Assembly (NCBI GenBank): GCA_036374135.1
Contig: DASUUK010000018.1
Span: 1-34,085, forward strand
From: Euzebyales bacterium
GTDB taxonomy: Bacteria > Actinomycetota > Nitriliruptoria > Euzebyales > JAHELV01
Length of the DNA: 34,085 bases
Direction: 5' to 3'
The position numbers were made by a program, and so were the translations under genes. The number at the start of each line of letters is the position of its first letter. Position 1 is the first letter of the stretch. The notes below the pieces were generated by a model. The model was given only the letters and a program-made list of their open reading frames with translations, was not told the DNA's origin and ran no database searches. Below are positions 17,851-25,182 of the stretch, piece after piece.

Positions 17851-18062
17851 GACCGCTTCCTCTCCGCGTCGCACCGTGCTCCGAAGTATGACCGATCACC
17901 GCGCTGCGTCTCGCGGCGCCACGGGTCACTGGTCCGCACAAAAAGTTCGTACTATGCTTGCCCTATTCTCGATCGCCTGTCAAGCGCCGCGGGCACCCCG
18001 GGAGGAACCCAGCGGGCATCGACGGCGAACGCAACGGACGAGACTGCAGCCAGGAGTGCGGG

Positions 18063-19424
18063 ATGGTCGACATCGCGACGATCGAGACGACGAGCCTTGG
18101 CGACCGCAGCTACGTCGTGACCGACGGCACCGTCGCCGCCGTCATCGACCCGCAACGCGACATCGACCGCGTGCTCGACGTCGCCGCTGACCGGGGGGTC
18201 GAGATCACCCACGTGTTCGAGACCCACGTGCACAACGACTACATCACCGGCGGCTACCAGTTGGCCCGCTCGACAGGTGCGGCGTACCACCTGCATGCCG
18301 ACGATGAGGTGACCTTCGATCGTGTGGCCGTCGCCGACGGCGACGTGGTCCACGTCGGCGCGATGACGGTGCGCGCCGTCCACACACCGGGCCACACGCC
18401 GACCCATCTGTCCTACGTCGTCAGCGCCGACGGGGACGACGTCGCGGTGTTCACCGGCGGATCGATGCTGTACGGGACGGTCGGCCGCACGGACCTGATC
18501 TCCCGGGCGATGGCTGACGAGTTGACCCGCCAGCAGCACAGGTCGGTCCGCCGCCTGGCCGACCTGCTCGACGACGACGTCGCCGTCATGCCCACCCACG
18601 GCTTCGGCAGCTTCTGCTCCTCGGCAGTGGTCGACGCGGGCGACACGTCGACGATCGGTGACGAGCGCAAGCAGAACCTTGCCCTCACACTCACCGACGA
18701 GGACGACTTCGTCGAGCGCCTGCTGAGCGGGCTCGACGCCTATCCCCGGTACTACGTGCACATGGCACCACGGAACCGCCTGGGCCCAGAGCCGATCGAC
18801 CTGTCACCACCGGCACCGGCGGACCCGGCGGAGATCCGGGCCCGCATCCACAGCGGGGAGTGGGTCGTCGACCTGCGGGACAGGACGGTCTTCGCCGCCG
18901 ACTTCCTGCAGGGCACGGTCAACATCGGGCTGGACGACTCGTTCTCCACGTACCTGGGCTGGCTCATGCCGTGGAACATGCCGGTCACGCTGGTCGGCGA
19001 CACCGGCGATGACATCGCGGAGGCCCAGCGCCAACTGGTCCGCATCGGCATCGAACGCCCTGCGGCTGCCGCGGACGGGGGGATCGACGCCTTCGCGGGC
19101 GGAGGGCGGCGGCGCAGCTACAGGGTCGTCGACTTCGCCGACGTGGCGGACCTGGGAAGCGACCACGATCGACCGACGATCCTCGACGTCAGACGGTATG
19201 ACGAGTGGTCCGAGAGCAGCGTGACCGGTGCCACCCACGTCCCGCTCCACGAGCTCGACCGGCGCATGTCCGAGGTGCCCGGTGGTGAGGTGTGGGTGCA
19301 CTGCCGGTCCGGCTACCGCGCCTCGATCGCCGCCTCGCTGCTGGCCCGCGCCGGCCGCGACCCCGTGCTGATCGACGACGACTACGAGCGCGCCGACGCA
19401 CTGGGGCTCACGACCTCAGGCTGA
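18063..19424 (+). CDS. CstB-like MBL-fold/rhodanese fusion (persulfide dioxygenase-type), copy 1
   Basis: 453 residues with the three-part layout of Staphylococcus CstB: metallo-beta-lactamase domain (1-245), Cys-less pseudo-rhodanese (about 255-345) and an active rhodanese (about 365-450) with catalytic Cys414 in WVHCRSGYRAS. CstB-type enzymes oxidise low-molecular-weight persulfide and release thiosulfate. Metal ligands visible are His55, His57, Asp59 (THVHNDY), His111 (TPGHTPTH) and His179 (PTHGFGS). The Asp expected in the FTGD motif of persulfide dioxygenases is Gly133 here (FTGGSML). Start ATG 18063 has AGGAG 8 nt upstream. Unlike copy 2 it has no ATACCC-N4-GGGTAT operator upstream. It converges with the rhodanese gene. 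Confidence 0.9.
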   Translation: MVDIATIETTSLGDRSYVVTDGTVAAVIDPQRDIDRVLDVAADRGVEITHVFETHVHNDYITGGYQLARSTGAAYHLHADDEVTFDRVAVADGDVVHVGAMTVRAVHTPGHTPTHLSYVVSADGDDVAVFTGGSMLYGTVGRTDLISRAMADELTRQQHRSVRRLADLLDDDVAVMPTHGFGSFCSSAVVDAGDTSTIGDERKQNLALTLTDEDDFVERLLSGLDAYPRYYVHMAPRNRLGPEPIDLSPPAPADPAEIRARIHSGEWVVDLRDRTVFAADFLQGTVNIGLDDSFSTYLGWLMPWNMPVTLVGDTGDDIAEAQRQLVRIGIERPAAAADGGIDAFAGGGRRRSYRVVDFADVADLGSDHDRPTILDVRRYDEWSESSVTGATHVPLHELDRRMSEVPGGEVWVHCRSGYRASIAASLLARAGRDPVLIDDDYERADALGLTTSG

Positions 19425-19483: not shown

Positions 19484-20056
19484 TCATCCGGAGAGGCGGG
19501 CGAGGGCGTCGTCGATGTCCGCGGTGGGCGCGGCGTTGAACGGCAGGCGGGCCAGCACCGCACCCATGGCGCAGGAGTTGCTCAGGCCGGCCCAGGTCAG
19601 ACCGGCACCGACCGCACCGGCCACGAACCTGGCGCGGGGCCAGACGATGCTGGCGAGGATCGACACGAAGACGATCCCCCCGGCCGTGAGCCGGACCTGA
19701 CGCTCGATCGGCCATCCGGCGCCGTCGCCGACGCGGTCGACCGGCCCACCCGCGGCGGTCCAACCGGTCATACCGCCCTCGAGGACCTCGACATCGTCCA
19801 GACCGGCGGTGGTCAGCTTCTCACACGCCCGGCTGGCGCGGCCGCCGGACTGGCAGACGAGCACCATGTGCCCGCCAGCGTCGGCCACGATGCGCCGCAG
19901 GTGCGCGTCGACCTGGTCGAGTGGAAGGTTGATCGCTCCGGGGATGTGACCGGCCCTGAACTCCGCGGGGGTGCGGACGTCGACGACGAGCGTGTCGGGG
20001 TCGTCGGCCAGCGCCGAGCGCAGTCGGGTCGTGTCGGTCATCGTCTGGGTTGACAT
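19484..20056 (-). CDS. Rhodanese domain fused to DUF2892 membrane domain
   Basis: 190 residues. The N-terminal single rhodanese (about 10-105) has active-site Cys68 in VLVCQSGGRAS and the landmark DVRTPAEFRAGHIPGAINLP. The C-terminal part (about 115-172) is a DUF2892-type region with two short hydrophobic helices. It ends in SNSCAMGAVLARLPFN, which matches the Cys-containing close of such proteins. It probably holds a sulfurtransferase at the inner face of the membrane, passing sulfane sulfur from persulfide. GAGGAG lies 8 nt before ATG 20056. It starts 56 bp after the end of CstB-like copy 2 and is very probably in the same operon, hence under the palindromic operator at 21494. Confidence 0.92.
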   Translation of the reverse strand: MSTQTMTDTTRLRSALADDPDTLVVDVRTPAEFRAGHIPGAINLPLDQVDAHLRRIVADAGGHMVLVCQSGGRASRACEKLTTAGLDDVEVLEGGMTGWTAAGGPVDRVGDGAGWPIERQVRLTAGGIVFVSILASIVWPRARFVAGAVGAGLTWAGLSNSCAMGAVLARLPFNAAPTADIDDALARLSG

Positions 20057-20112: not shown

Positions 20113-21450
20113 TCAGGCGGCGGGCGCGAGGTGGCCCGTCAGCTCGGCGGCCCCGTCGCGATCGAGCGTCACGGCCTCGATGCCGCCCGAGGCCAGCACG
20201 GACGCCGCGATCGCCGCACGACGGCCGGAGCCGCACACGATGTGGACACGGCGACCTGCGTCGATGCCAGGGGGCAGGCCTTCGGCGACGAGGTCCGGCA
20301 GGAAGCGCTCGTGTGCGCCCGGCAGCGGCTGTTCCTCGCGCTCGCTGGCCATGCGGACGTCCAGCAACTGCGCGTCGGCGTCGAGGTCGGCCACGAACCC
20401 GCCGAGGTCGAGCAGGGTGAAGCCCACGAGCTGCGCGCCGGTCAGTTCGCGGATCACGCCGCGGACATCGTCGACGCCGATCCGTGCGAGCTGGGTGGCG
20501 GCCTCGGCCACGTCATCGTCCGGACCGGCGACGAGCACGATCGGCGCGTCGTGCGGCGTGAGCCATCCGACCCACGACCCGAAGTCGTCGGTGAGCTCGA
20601 TGGCCAGTGAGCCGGGCAGCAGCCCGCCGGCCTGGACCGATCGCGGGCGGATGTCGATGACACGGGTGTCGTCGGGAAACAGGTCGAGCGCCGCGACCGA
20701 CATGGTGGGCACCACCGGCGAACGCATGTCGGGGACGCCGAGGGTGTTCGACGGCCCCATGTGCGCGTAGAAGCTCGGGATCGGCATCGGCCGGGCGAGC
20801 AGCAGGTCGGCCATCGCGTCGGCGCTGTCGACCTGCAGCACCGGGTTGGTGCGGCGCTCGTCGCCGATCGTCGACGTGTAGCGGCCGGCGTTGCTCGCCG
20901 TGCAGAACGAGCCCTCTCCGTGGGTCGGGTACAGGGCGACGTCGTCAGGCAGTGCCGCGAGCCGGCGGACGGACGTGTACTGCAGCCTGCCCAGCGAGCG
21001 CGCACGCGCCCACCCCAGCAGGTCCGGCCGCCCGGCCGACGCGACGAGCAGACTGCCACCACTGAACACGGCGACGGGAGCACCATCGATCAGCATGACG
21101 TAGCTGGTGTGCTCGGGCGTGTGCCCCGGCGTGTGCAGGGGGCGGATGTCGAAGCCTCCGCCGCCGATCGCCTCCAGGTGGAAGGCGGGCAGGTGGTCGT
21201 ACGCCGGCGCCGCCGCCGCTGGCACGACCAGCTCGGCACCCGTGCGGCGGGCGGCCTCGACGCCACCCGACACGTAGTCGTTGTGCAGGTGCGTCTCCAG
21301 CACGAACCGGATCTCGACGTCCCGTTCGTCGGCGACGGCGAGGAACCGGTCCACGTCGCGCTGGGGGTCGACCAGCACACCGACGCCGTCGTGTGTCCAC
21401 AGGTAGGTCTGGTCACCGAGGCCGGGGGTCCTGAACGGATCGACGCGCAT
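20113..21450 (-). CDS. CstB-like MBL-fold/rhodanese fusion, copy 2
   Basis: 445 residues with the same MBL / pseudo-rhodanese / rhodanese order as copy 1, and clearly a diverged paralogue. Ligands: His54, His56, Asp58 (THLHNDYVSGG), His110 (TPGHTPEH) and His177 (PTHGEGSFC). The FTGD aspartate is again Gly (FSGGSLL, residues 130-134). The middle domain lacks Cys; the C-terminal rhodanese has Cys406 in HIVCGSGRRAA. The start at ATG 21450 is chosen because the MBL domain begins there; the in-frame 21519 start would lie upstream of the promoter elements. It is the first gene of an operon with the rhodanese-DUF2892 gene, controlled by a CstR-type operator. A role in sulfide/persulfide detoxification is inferred. 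Confidence 0.92.
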   Translation of the reverse strand: MRVDPFRTPGLGDQTYLWTHDGVGVLVDPQRDVDRFLAVADERDVEIRFVLETHLHNDYVSGGVEAARRTGAELVVPAAAAPAYDHLPAFHLEAIGGGGFDIRPLHTPGHTPEHTSYVMLIDGAPVAVFSGGSLLVASAGRPDLLGWARARSLGRLQYTSVRRLAALPDDVALYPTHGEGSFCTASNAGRYTSTIGDERRTNPVLQVDSADAMADLLLARPMPIPSFYAHMGPSNTLGVPDMRSPVVPTMSVAALDLFPDDTRVIDIRPRSVQAGGLLPGSLAIELTDDFGSWVGWLTPHDAPIVLVAGPDDDVAEAATQLARIGVDDVRGVIRELTGAQLVGFTLLDLGGFVADLDADAQLLDVRMASEREEQPLPGAHERFLPDLVAEGLPPGIDAGRRVHIVCGSGRRAAIAASVLASGGIEAVTLDRDGAAELTGHLAPAA

Positions 21451-21490: not shown

Positions 21491-21519
21491 AATATACCCA
21501 CCAGGGTATCTGCACGCAA
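21491..21519 (-). promoter_or_regulatory. Promoter of the CstB copy 2 - rhodanese operon
   Basis: Minus-strand -35 TTGCGT (21519-21514) and -10 TATATT (21496-21491), spacer exactly 17 bp. The palindromic operator occupies most of the spacer and overlaps the -10 by 3 bp, so a bound repressor would block polymerase directly. Confidence 0.68.
21494..21509. promoter_or_regulatory. CstR/CsoR-type operator, site A
   Basis: Perfect palindrome ATACCC-ACCA-GGGTAT, 44 bp upstream of the CstB copy 2 start codon. CsoR-superfamily repressors bind G/C tracts flanked by TA (TACCC...GGGTA), as known for CstR. An identically built site stands before the sulP-cstR operon. Confidence 0.72.
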
Positions 21520-21535
21520 CTCCGCGTCGGGGCGC

Positions 21536-21799
21536 TCAGGACATGGACATCAGCGTCCGCCGCAGCGCCTCCGCATCGACGTCGTCGCCCTCCTGCAGGC
21601 ACGCCTCGAAGGCGGTCACCGCAAGCACCATCCCGGCGGCGCGCAGCGCGTTGGACGTGGCGGTGAACTGGCGCAGGACGTCGCGGCAGTCACCGCCCTC
21701 CTCGAGGCCGCGTTGCAGTCCACGGATCTGCCCCTCTATCCGCCGCAGCCGCCTGTGCAGCGCCGCGACCTCGGACCGGTCGAGTCTGTCGACGTTCAC
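21536..21799 (-). CDS. CsoR-superfamily repressor, CstR-like (persulfide sensor)
   Basis: Four-helix DUF156 protein, 87 residues from GTG 21799 (GGAAGG 7 nt upstream). ALHRRLRRIEGQIRGLQRGLEEGGDCRDVLRQF is the family core. The sensing positions are Cys38 and Cys67, 29 residues apart, as in CsoR (Cys36/Cys65) and CstR (Cys31/Cys60). The copper-binding His four residues before the second Cys is replaced by Ala63. Two Cys without the His is the pattern of CstR, which responds to persulfides by forming di- to tetrasulfide links, not of copper-responsive CsoR. GTG overlaps the stop of the SulP gene (GTGA), so it is translationally coupled to it. Probable targets are the sites at 21494 and 23531. 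Confidence 0.9.
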   Translation of the reverse strand: MNVDRLDRSEVAALHRRLRRIEGQIRGLQRGLEEGGDCRDVLRQFTATSNALRAAGMVLAVTAFEACLQEGDDVDAEALRRTLMSMS

Positions 21800-23484
21800 G
21801 TGGTGGCCTTCCGGTCGCAGGGTGGCTGGCTGGACATCTGCCCGGTCACTCTGTCGCGACGCGATGTCGGAGCGGCGGCCGCGACGGCATCGCGGATGTG
21901 CACGTGTGTGCCGGCGAGCCGGTCGGGCACCGCCGTACGCGTCAGCACGTCGCGCACCGGCCCCTTGACTGCGGAGAGGTGCACCACCACGCCTCGGTCC
22001 GCGAGCTCGTCGATCAGCTCCGTCAGCGTCTCGACCGCGCTCGAGTCGATGTCGTTGACGCCCGACATGTCCAGCACGAGCGCCCGCGGGTGTGTGGCGG
22101 CGTCCATCACGTGCCGGATCCGGTCCTTCATGAACTCGGCGTTGAGATAGCTCAGCGACACGTCGAACCGGACCACGACGACCCCATCGGTCTGCTCGGC
22201 CTCGGGGAAGCGCTCGACGTTGCGGTAGGCGTCCGCGTCGGGAAGGTGGCCGAGCACCGCCGTGTGGGGGCGCATCATCCGCGCGAAGACGACGACCGCC
22301 GACCCGATCGCCGACACCGCGATCCCGAGCTCGACACCGAGCGCGAGGGTCGCGACGAATGCGCCGGCCAGGGTCCACCCGTCGGGGGGCTTGACCGTCA
22401 CGATGTGACGCGCCTCGTCGAGATCGATCAGCCCGGCGACGGCCAGCAGGACGACGGCGCCGAGCGTCGCCTGCGGCAACTGCGTGAACAAGGGTGTGAG
22501 CGCCACGAGCACCAGCAGCATGATCAGAGCCGTGATGACGCCCGCGGCGCGCGTCCTCGCACCGGCCTCAGCGTTGACGGCGGTGCGCGAGAACCCACCC
22601 GTCACGGGATACCCACCGACCAGTCCGGACGCGAGGTTGGCTGCGCCCAGTCCCAGCAGCTCACGGTTCGCATCGACGTCCTGCTGGTTCCTCCGGGCGT
22701 AGACCTTCGCGATGGCGATCGACTCGAGCACGCCGACGAGCGTGACCGCGAATGCGGCGGGTACGAGGTCGATGGCGAGCGACAGGTCGTTGGGCAGCGT
22801 GAGCGGTGGCAGCCCGCGCGGGATGTCGCCGACCACCGCGACGCCCCGGGCAGGCAGGTTCCACACGACCGACGCGACCGTCGTGACCGCCACGGCGATC
22901 AGCGCGGCCGGCAGCGTCGGGCGGAGCCGGCGCAGCACCGCCATCAACGCGACCGCGCCGGCGCCGACCGCGAGCGTGGGCAGGTGCGTGTCGGGGACGG
23001 TGGCCGCCACCGCGGCGATGCTCGCCAGCCAGTTCTCACCAGGTTCCGGGCTGGTGCCGAGCACGTGCTTGAGCTGGCTGGTACCGATGATCAACGCAGC
23101 GGCGGCCGTGAAGCCCACCAGCACCGGGTGCGACAGCAGCCGAACGAGGAAGCCCAGTCGACCGGCCCCCAGCACGAGGTGGACGATCGCGACCACGAGC
23201 GCGAGCAGGCCGGCGGCCGCCACGTAGGCCTCGGAGCCCTCCTCGGCGATCGGGGCGAGCGCCGAGGCGGTCAGCAGTGAGACGATCGCAACGGGACCCA
23301 CCGCGAGCTGACGCGATGTGCCGATCACGGCGTACGCCAGCAGCGGCACGGTCGACGCGTACAGCCCGACCTGTGGCGGCAGCCCCGCGAGCAGTGCGTA
23401 GGCCATGGCCTGCGGCACGAGCATGGCCGCGACCGTGAGTCCCGCCGCGAGATCGCTGCGCAGTGCGGTCCGCACCCAGGTCAT
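21796..23484 (-). CDS. SulP-family anion transporter with STAS domain
   Basis: Inner-membrane transporter of 562 residues (SLC26/SulP family). The N-terminal signature LRSDLAAGLTVAAMLVPQAMAYALLAGLPPQVGLYAS is the SulP hallmark, followed by 10 or more membrane helices to about residue 420. A cytoplasmic STAS domain (about 440-550) contains ALVLDMSGVNDIDSSAVETL. Substrates in the family are sulfate, bicarbonate and other oxyanions. In this setting export or import of sulfite, thiosulfate or sulfate is plausible but unproven; Staphylococcus uses a TauE-type exporter at this place. Start ATG 23484 has GGGGGAG 9 nt upstream. Its stop overlaps the CstR-like gene start. The operator at 23531-23546 lies 47 bp upstream. 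Confidence 0.95.
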   Translation of the reverse strand: MTWVRTALRSDLAAGLTVAAMLVPQAMAYALLAGLPPQVGLYASTVPLLAYAVIGTSRQLAVGPVAIVSLLTASALAPIAEEGSEAYVAAAGLLALVVAIVHLVLGAGRLGFLVRLLSHPVLVGFTAAAALIIGTSQLKHVLGTSPEPGENWLASIAAVAATVPDTHLPTLAVGAGAVALMAVLRRLRPTLPAALIAVAVTTVASVVWNLPARGVAVVGDIPRGLPPLTLPNDLSLAIDLVPAAFAVTLVGVLESIAIAKVYARRNQQDVDANRELLGLGAANLASGLVGGYPVTGGFSRTAVNAEAGARTRAAGVITALIMLLVLVALTPLFTQLPQATLGAVVLLAVAGLIDLDEARHIVTVKPPDGWTLAGAFVATLALGVELGIAVSAIGSAVVVFARMMRPHTAVLGHLPDADAYRNVERFPEAEQTDGVVVVRFDVSLSYLNAEFMKDRIRHVMDAATHPRALVLDMSGVNDIDSSAVETLTELIDELADRGVVVHLSAVKGPVRDVLTRTAVPDRLAGTHVHIRDAVAAAAPTSRRDRVTGQMSSQPPCDRKATT

Positions 23485-23527
23485 GCCAACATGCTCCCCC
23501 GGATCGGGAGGTTACGACGACTGGGCC

Positions 23528-23546
23528 ACCATACCCCCGTGGGTAT
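23528..23546 (-). promoter_or_regulatory. CstR/CsoR-type operator, site B, with overlapping -10
   Basis: Perfect palindrome ATACCC-CCGT-GGGTAT at 23531-23546, 47 bp upstream of the SulP start. The minus-strand hexamer TATGGT (23533-23528) overlaps it by 3 bp, exactly the geometry of site A, and may be the -10. The expected -35 position reads CGGCGG and is poor, so this promoter is weak or read by another sigma factor. Confidence 0.68.
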
Positions 23547-24242: not shown

Positions 24243-24630
24243 TCAATGACCGATCTGGTGCTCACCGGCCTCGTCGATGCCGCTCTCGTAAGCGAAGACG
24301 ATGAGTTGCGCCCCGGCCGCGGAGACCGAGCTTGGTCAACAGGCTGGAGGCGTGAGACTTGACGGTGGCGGCGCCGATGCACAGCTCCTTGGAGATCTCC
24401 GCGTTGTTGGCCCCGCGGGCGACCGGCCAGTCGGCGTCGGCGATGATCGCCGACGTTGCCTCGAGTCCATCCATCCGCCGCATACGGATGTCCATCAGGA
24501 TCACATCGGGCCGATGGATCCGGGCCGCCCGACGATGAGTGCCCGTCCCCGCGGACTGACCCGCTCAGGGACCGGCGCGCTGGTCGTCGGGGCGCCACGG
24601 CGGCCCGACGACCGGCACACCCGTTCGTCC
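24243..24630 (-). pseudogene. Decayed NarL/FixJ-type response regulator
   Basis: Remnant of a LuxR-type response regulator. In one frame I read an acidic DDQ (24588-24580), an in-frame stop, then AARIHRPDVILMDIRMRRMDGLEATSAIIADAD containing the phospho-Asp. About 60 or more residues are then missing: the rest of the receiver and the start of the HTH. It resumes directly with NAEISKELCIGAATVKSHASSLLTKLGLR, the LuxR recognition helices. After that the frame shifts, and the family's usual C-terminus AQLIVFAYESGIDEAG is found in another frame, ending at TGA 24243. An internal deletion, a frameshift and a stop make it non-functional. It lies back to back with a second truncated regulator. Confidence 0.8.
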
Positions 24631-24681
24631 TCACGGAGACACTGAGATCATGCCGGCGACCGCCACGACCGCCCCGACGTC

Positions 24682-25182
24682 GTGCTGATGGACGTGCGCA
24701 TGCCGGAGATGGACGGACTCGAGGCGACGCGGCGCATCACCGACGAACTAGCGGATCCACGGGTCGTCGTGCTCACGACGTTCGACGTCGACGACTACGT
24801 CTACGGAGCGCTGCGCCACGGTGCGAGCGGCTTCCTGCTCAAGGACGCCGGCGGCGACGAACTCGTCCACGCCGTCCGCGTCGTCGCCGCCGGCGACGCA
24901 CTGATCGCACCGTCGGTCACCGCGCGGCTGATCGCCGAGTTCGCGCGCCGCCCGCGCTCGGACGGCGTCATCGGGCTCGACGCGTTGACCGATCGCGAGA
25001 CGGAGGTCCTCGGGCTGGTGGCGAAGGGGTTGTCGAACGCCGAGATCGCCGGGCGGCTGCACGTCTCGGAGACGACGGTCAAGACGCACGTCTCCCACAT
25101 CCTCACCAAGCTGTCGCTGCGGGACCGCGTGCAGGCGGTCGTCGCCGCGTACGAATCAGGCCTGGTGACGCCGGGCGCCTGA
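24682..25182 (+). CDS. N-terminally truncated NarL/FixJ-type response regulator (likely pseudogene)
   Basis: Open frame of 166 residues from GTG 24682. It begins inside the receiver domain at LMDVRMPEMDGLEATRRI, so phospho-Asp, switch Thr (VVLTTFDVDDYVYGALRHGASGFLLKDAG) and Lys are kept. The first two beta strands with the acidic metal-binding pair are missing. The HTH is complete (LTDRETEVLGLVAKGLSNAEIAGRLHVSETTVKTHVSHILTKLSLRDRVQAV, about 105-155). Upstream in the same frame RPDVV is preceded by DHAGDRHD, then a stop codon, and further up a DD pair at 24607-24612. This suggests decay of the original 5' end. No ribosome binding site is visible. It may be a pseudogene or a constitutive DNA-binding fragment. 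Confidence 0.72.
   Translation: MLMDVRMPEMDGLEATRRITDELADPRVVVLTTFDVDDYVYGALRHGASGFLLKDAGGDELVHAVRVVAAGDALIAPSVTARLIAEFARRPRSDGVIGLDALTDRETEVLGLVAKGLSNAEIAGRLHVSETTVKTHVSHILTKLSLRDRVQAVVAAYESGLVTPGA

What the first reader, a model, noticed from the sequence alone, without database searches (positions are those of the whole stretch)
21494..23546. A CstR-type sulfur-stress regulon with paired ATACCC-N4-GGGTAT operators
Two perfect 16-bp palindromes of identical design stand 44 and 47 bp upstream of two separate operons (CstB-like plus rhodanese-DUF2892, and SulP plus CsoR-family repressor). The repressor has Cys38/Cys67 with Ala where CsoR has its copper-binding His, the ligand set of the persulfide sensor CstR. 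Target genes are persulfide-processing types. All of this fits an actinobacterial counterpart of the Staphylococcus cst system with a different layout: no sqr, no TauE, and a SulP transporter instead.
Basis: partly seen in the sequence, partly recalled or inferred. Interest (0 to 1): 0.8.

Follow-up and report, generated by a model that had tools for sequence, protein, structure and literature searches.

The report
Persulfide-sensor circuit with SulP transporter
A small repressor that very probably senses reactive sulfur switches on two neighbouring gene sets for burning off persulfides; this kind of circuit is already proven in Streptomyces, but here the usual sulfite exporter is replaced by a SulP-type anion transporter.

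Summary
Two perfect ATACCC-N4-GGGTAT palindromes stand in the gaps of a same-strand array, before PDO/rhodanese (site 1) and SulP/CsoR-family repressor (site 2). They are the only sites with at most one mismatch in the 3.98 Mb genome. The repressor has Cys38/Cys67 and Ala63 where copper CsoR has His; the genome's copper CsoR lies elsewhere, beside CopZ/CopA.
The Streptomyces coelicolor ScCsoR circuit (PMC7533328) has the same operator (ATACC-N6-GGTAT), two reactive cysteines, a PDO-rhodanese enzyme, a rhodanese and a TauE exporter, shown in vitro and in vivo. It is a closer precedent than Staphylococcus.
What differs is SulP in TauE's place. CstR-linked SulP recurs in at least five other genomes, and a whole SulP subclade (26 of 31 loci at 42% identity or more, 0 of 6 below 40%) travels with PDO/rhodanese genes, mostly without this operator. 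The 'CstB-like' enzymes lack the Asp that binds iron in human ETHE1; published ScPDO appears to lack it too and is active.
Verdict: new variant of a known kind. Persulfide sensing and the direction of SulP transport are untested.

The parts
21494..21509 (.). Operator 1, ATACCCACCAGGGTAT, before the PDO/rhodanese operon; on the - strand a TATATT box overlaps its promoter-proximal end, 17 nt after TTGCGT (weak promoter match read by eye)
   Evidence: the consensus promoter scan found nothing
23531..23546 (.). Operator 2, ATACCCCCGTGGGTAT, before the SulP/repressor operon
21536..21799 (-). CsoR-family, CstR/ScCsoR-type repressor, 87 aa, Cys38/Ala63/Cys67, start overlaps the SulP stop (GTGA)
21796..23484 (-). 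SulP anion transporter with STAS domain, 562 aa, of the subclade linked to PDO/rhodanese genes
20113..21450 (-). Type III PDO-like metallo-beta-lactamase/rhodanese fusion; HLHND, HTPGHT, but Gly in place of the ETHE1 Asp154-type iron ligand; rhodanese Cys kept
   Evidence: ligand identity from PMC4383860
19484..20056 (-). Rhodanese with YgaP-like (DUF2892) membrane tail, second gene of the operator-1 operon
18060..19424 (+). Second PDO-rhodanese paralogue, no operator; 52-56% identical to actinobacterial PDOs of the ScPDO type and 76% to a PDO next to SulP in a genome of the same genus

Best explanation
This is a local sulfane-sulfur detoxification circuit. The 87-residue CstR/ScCsoR-type repressor, in its reduced form, binds the two 16-bp palindromes and shuts both promoters, including its own. 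When persulfides or polysulfides build up they modify Cys38, with help from Cys67; the repressor lets go, and PDO-rhodanese, membrane rhodanese and SulP are made. The rhodanese domains hand sulfane sulfur on, the PDO domain oxidises it to sulfite, and SulP most likely exports the resulting sulfur oxyanion, the job TauE is thought to do in Streptomyces and Nonomuraea. New repressor made from the SulP transcript closes the loop. Shown here: sites, uniqueness, residues, gene order, conservation of the wiring. Inferred: DNA binding, persulfide sensing, enzyme activity, substrate and direction of SulP.
For: Only two sites with at most 1 mismatch genome-wide, both before sulfur genes of one locus. 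Operator with 0 mismatches in 12 of 61 related genomes and the reversed control in none; most sit beside CstR-type, PDO, SulP or VKOR genes, a few do not. Among CsoR-family genes, a strict operator lies within 2 kb of 31 of 36 with a small residue at the His position and of 1 of 49 with His; chance per window about 0.1%. The window's repressor falls in a supported 10-row set of small-residue regulators. Same-genome contrast: copper CsoR with His beside CopZ/CopA and a differently spaced TACCC-N5-GGGTA site. Experimental precedent with the same operator: ScCsoR, Cys37 persulfidated, C37S and C66S no longer released, PDO active on GSSH. CstR-linked SulP in independent loci: L078 (SulP 72%, PDO 68%, rhodanese 69%, sites but regulator 2.5 Mb away with its own site), L086 Miltoncostaea, and PDO-SulP-CstR clusters L045, L046, L047. 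Nonomuraea L234 has the same PDO-rhodanese pair followed by operator-TauE, so SulP and TauE fill the same slot.
Against: No binding or expression data. The residue-operator association is one evolutionary change on the tree, so the Fisher value (7e-17) overstates independence. The window's repressor is on a long branch (0.99) with Ala where most relatives have Gly. Both PDO-like proteins lack one ETHE1-type iron ligand. No SulP of this subclade has a tested substrate to my knowledge. Three same-genus genomes lack this repressor and operator, so the circuit is patchy.
Confidence: 0.8

Rival explanations
1. The repressor is a copper or other metal sensor of the CsoR/RcnR kind and the sulfur genes are targets by accident or answer metal-thiol stress.
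For: Family membership PF02583; best solved-structure matches are copper CsoRs; G-tract palindromes are a family trait.
Against: The copper-binding His is Ala; the genome has a His-bearing CsoR beside CopZ/CopA; no copper gene adjoins the two operators.
Confidence: 0.04
2. It is a general thiol-redox switch (disulfide, HOCl, electrophile or HNO sensor), not specific for persulfides, as proposed for T. thermophilus TTHA1953.
For: TTHA1953 is a two-Cys CsoR relative that binds DNA less well when oxidised and does not answer NaHS (PMC10318464). Related operators precede VKOR-like genes in class-mates.
Against: Targets here are persulfide enzymes; the ScCsoR precedent responds to polysulfide; TTHA1953 uses a different operator, and Thermaceae regulators form a separate group with aromatic residues and no such site.
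Confidence: 0.12
3. The circuit is as described, but SulP imports sulfate or thiosulfate rather than exporting sulfite/sulfate.
For: Bacterial SulP proteins are usually described as uptake systems; the best solved match is a plant chloroplast sulfate transporter, 7lhv.
Against: It fills the slot of TauE in the same operon type and no TauE was seen beside SulP-PDO genes; import of the end product during sulfur excess makes little sense.
Confidence: 0.3
4. The PDO-like proteins are not dioxygenases but sulfurtransferases or hydrolase-like enzymes because the iron-site Asp is missing.
For: Gly replaces the ETHE1 Asp154 equivalent in both window proteins and in a whole clade.
Against: SCO0618 (ScPDO) seems to belong to this clade: the published guide ACCGGCGGTTCGCTGCTGAT reads TGGSLL in frame and matches Streptomyces GG-clade genes with 1 mismatch; purified ScPDO consumed O2 with GSSH, Vmax 1.19 umol/min/mg.
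Confidence: 0.15

Closest known systems
Streptomyces coelicolor ScCsoR circuit (SCO0618-SCO0621), Lu et al. 2020, PMC7533328
   Same: CsoR-like two-Cys repressor, 16-bp ATACC-N6-GGTAT operators before pdo and before csoR/rhod, type III PDO with rhodanese domain, separate rhodanese, autoregulation
   Different: TauE exporter co-transcribed with pdo instead of SulP; two sites in the pdo promoter instead of one; csoR not in an operon with a transporter
Staphylococcus aureus cst operon (CstR, CstA, CstB, TauE, SQR)
   Same: CsoR-family persulfide sensor, PDO-rhodanese and rhodanese targets (from general knowledge; the S. aureus structure 3r2u is the second-best solved relative of the window PDO)
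   Different: Different PDO clade (GD instead of GG at the iron-site motif), no SQR or TauE in this regulon, SulP present
Arthrobacter SUL plasmid modules, PMC6305408
   Same: CsoR regulator, sulfur dioxygenase, rhodaneses
   Different: TauE exporter; SulP lies in a separate module with a MerR regulator
Methylophaga mto clusters, PMC6548844
   Same: sulP clustered with pdo and expressed during growth on dimethylsulfide
   Different: Gammaproteobacteria, SQR and methanethiol oxidase, no CsoR regulator described in the passages read

Membership tests
CstR / ScCsoR (persulfide-sensing CsoR family) | CsoR/DUF156 fold family | tested here: met
   PF02583, 64.8 bits against cut-off 22.8
CstR / ScCsoR (persulfide-sensing CsoR family) | Two cysteines at the CsoR positions | tested here: met
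   C38 and C67, invariant in the CstR-type alignment
CstR / ScCsoR (persulfide-sensing CsoR family) | Copper-binding His absent | tested here: met
   A63; Gly, Ala, Asn or Thr in 36 CstR-type genes of other loci, His in 49
CstR / ScCsoR (persulfide-sensing CsoR family) | Operator of the ATACC-N6-GGTAT type before sulfur genes | tested here: met
CstR / ScCsoR (persulfide-sensing CsoR family) | Phylogenetic grouping with CstR-type rather than copper CsoR | tested here: met
   Supported set of 10 rows, all small-residue type; long branch noted
CstR / ScCsoR (persulfide-sensing CsoR family) | Release from DNA by persulfide or polysulfide, not by metals | not testable with these tools
   needs purified protein
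Type III persulfide dioxygenase (CstB-like) | Metallo-beta-lactamase plus rhodanese architecture | tested here: met
Type III persulfide dioxygenase (CstB-like) | ETHE1-type 2-His-1-Asp iron site | tested here: not met
   Gly at the Asp position in both paralogues; Asp in 3r2u and 3tp9. The ScPDO group seems to share this change and is active
Staphylococcal-type cst regulon | TauE and SQR among the targets | tested here: not met
   Only two operators in the genome, neither before TauE or SQR
SulP (SLC26-like) transporters | Sulfate_transp plus STAS domains | tested here: met
   PF00916 351 bits, PF01740 69 bits; solved relatives

The most novel reading that the evidence does not exclude
A SulP subfamily is a dedicated oxyanion exporter of persulfide oxidation, standing in for TauE, travelling as a module with PDO and rhodanese and placed under different regulators (CstR-type here, perhaps GntR or ArsR types elsewhere); its partner PDO clade works with an iron site lacking the usual carboxylate.
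Probability: 0.35. Interest if true: 0.6.

Novelty: new variant of a known kind. Interest (0 to 1): 0.42.

Why it matters
It widens a circuit known from Streptomyces and Firmicutes to other high-GC, actinobacterial-type lineages and ties a subgroup of the large, poorly assigned SulP family to persulfide detoxification, which gives that subgroup a testable substrate and direction. It also points out that the experimentally active ScPDO group seems to lack one canonical iron ligand, a question of mechanism that can be settled with one purified protein.

Tried and rejected
Copper regulon: rejected on residue and neighbourhood. Wider regulon in this genome: no third site with at most 1 mismatch; the 2-mismatch sites match background and were not followed. 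The 2-mismatch site near a CopA-type ATPase on C56 (L008) was taken as chance. Consensus promoter and terminator scans found nothing. Fisher test on residue versus operator: kept, but weakened because the tree shows a single change and offers only one independent pair. A first version of the residue script had a faulty pattern and was replaced. Structure prediction was not used: the tool reports confidence and secondary structure, not metal-site geometry.

Full report
What is there. On the minus strand from 24236 down to 19484 lie a methyltransferase, a gap with operator 2 (23531-23546), SulP (21796-23484), the CsoR-family repressor (21536-21799), a gap with operator 1 (21494-21509), a PDO-like metallo-beta-lactamase/rhodanese fusion (20113-21450) and a rhodanese with a YgaP-like tail (19484-20056). 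The SulP stop and the repressor start overlap as GTGA, so the two are almost certainly one operon. The PDO start is set at ATG 21450 from the start of relatives (such as MKIESFRTPGLGDQ). Both operators are perfect and are the only sites with 0 or 1 mismatch in the genome.

Repressor type. Cys38 and Cys67 are at the CsoR positions and Ala63 replaces the copper His. The genome has three members of the family: one with C-H-C beside CopZ/CopA and a TACCCCCCATGGGTA site, one C-H-H type, and this one. Among 103 CsoR-family genes read from related genomes and from named public genomes, a strict operator lies within 2 kb of 31 of 36 with Gly, Ala, Asn or Thr at that position and of 1 of 49 with His; mononucleotide shuffles give a site in 0.1% of such windows. 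The tree, built with that column masked, shows the His-to-small change as a single event and puts the window's protein in a supported set of ten small-residue regulators. The association is therefore one old, well kept pairing, not many independent ones. Forty-nine sites give the motif ATACCC(C)-N2-(G)GGGTAT with nearly invariant TACC/GGTA and no clear conservation outside the 16 bp.

Wiring in relatives. An exact site occurs in 12 of 61 related genomes; the reversed pattern occurs in none. Most of these sites lie before PDO genes, CstR-type genes, SulP, a VKOR-like membrane protein or near an AhpD-like protein; the sites in L070/L083 and L075/L080 have no such clear neighbour. G012 is a natural test: it carries operator-SulP-operator-PDO-rhodanese at 68-72% identity to the window with no repressor beside them (the second site has one mismatch), while its CstR-type gene, with its own operator and another PDO, lies 2.5 Mb away. 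Miltoncostaea L086 has operators before SulP/CstR and before a PDO. In L045, L046 and L047 PDO, SulP and CstR are clustered around one operator. Nonomuraea L234 has the window-type PDO-rhodanese pair followed by operator-TauE.

SulP. Of 37 SulP loci from two searches, the window's own among them, 26 of 31 at 42% identity or more to the window's SulP have PDO-like and/or rhodanese genes within about 1.5 kb, and none of 6 below 40% do; no TauE was seen beside them. Most have no CstR operator. Several lie next to a GntR-type gene (L214, L216, L221, L227), and L257 and L251 lie next to ArsR-type genes; whether those regulators control the module was not tested. The window is thus a sulfur module with SulP, wired to CstR.

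PDO. Human ETHE1 binds iron with His79, His135 and Asp154 (PMC4383860). The window's two PDO-like proteins have FSGGSLL and FTGGSML where S. aureus 3r2u and 3tp9 have FSGD. Two clades are seen: HFHADF with (T/S)GD, and mostly HxHND with GG; window-type proteins are in the second. The guide RNA published for sco0618 reads TGGSLL in frame and is one mismatch from Streptomyces genes of the GG clade, whose loci include ones with the PDO-TauE-CsoR layout. So the active ScPDO most likely shares the change. This rests on 20 published bases and on homologues, not on the SCO0618 sequence itself.

Known versus new. The mechanism was shown for ScCsoR: binding to ATACC-N6-GGTAT, release by polysulfide, Cys37 persulfidation, loss of release in C37S and C66S, control of pdo, tauE, rhod and itself (PMC7533328). 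The window's circuit works, by all signs, in the same way. New are the SulP partner under this operator, the single site per promoter, and the transporter-repressor operon. My literature searches found no paper joining SulP to a CstR-type regulon, within the open-licence library only.

Limits. All functional statements about this locus are inferences from sequence and precedent.

Noticed in passing
L049, L051, L052, L066, L071, L081, L082, L084: In class-mates the same operator stands before a VKOR-like membrane protein with a CPFC motif, often followed by a CstR-type gene; a disulfide-forming protein may belong to sulfane-sulfur regulons there.
   Followed up: partly
L053:6143-7262 and L054:7346-8363: Operators near an AhpD/carboxymuconolactone decarboxylase-like gene (CDGCIASH motif) beside a CstR-type gene.
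   Followed up: no
window 18060-19424 and 20113-21450; many relatives: A clade of PDO-rhodanese proteins with Gly for the iron-ligand Asp; the published active ScPDO seems to belong to it.
   Followed up: partly
L214, L216, L221, L227: SulP genes, in three of the four loci rhodanese-SulP-PDO operons, without CstR operators lie next to a conserved GntR-type regulator.
   Followed up: partly
L257:9934-10269 and L251:4050-4409: ArsR-type regulators next to PDO-SulP genes in other families of the phylum.
   Followed up: no
window 24262-25182: Two neighbouring response-regulator pieces: a minus-strand receiver fragment joined directly to a LuxR-type end, and a plus-strand LuxR regulator whose open frame starts inside the receiver domain; decay or frameshift is possible.
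   Followed up: no
L098:3524-3539: The one His-type CsoR (Bacillota MAG) with a perfect ATACCCCGGGGGGTAT site, an exception to the residue-operator rule.
   Followed up: no
L124, L131, L133, L156, L163: CsoR-family regulators with Arg at the His position (mostly Thermoleophilia) also have the operator just upstream.
   Followed up: no
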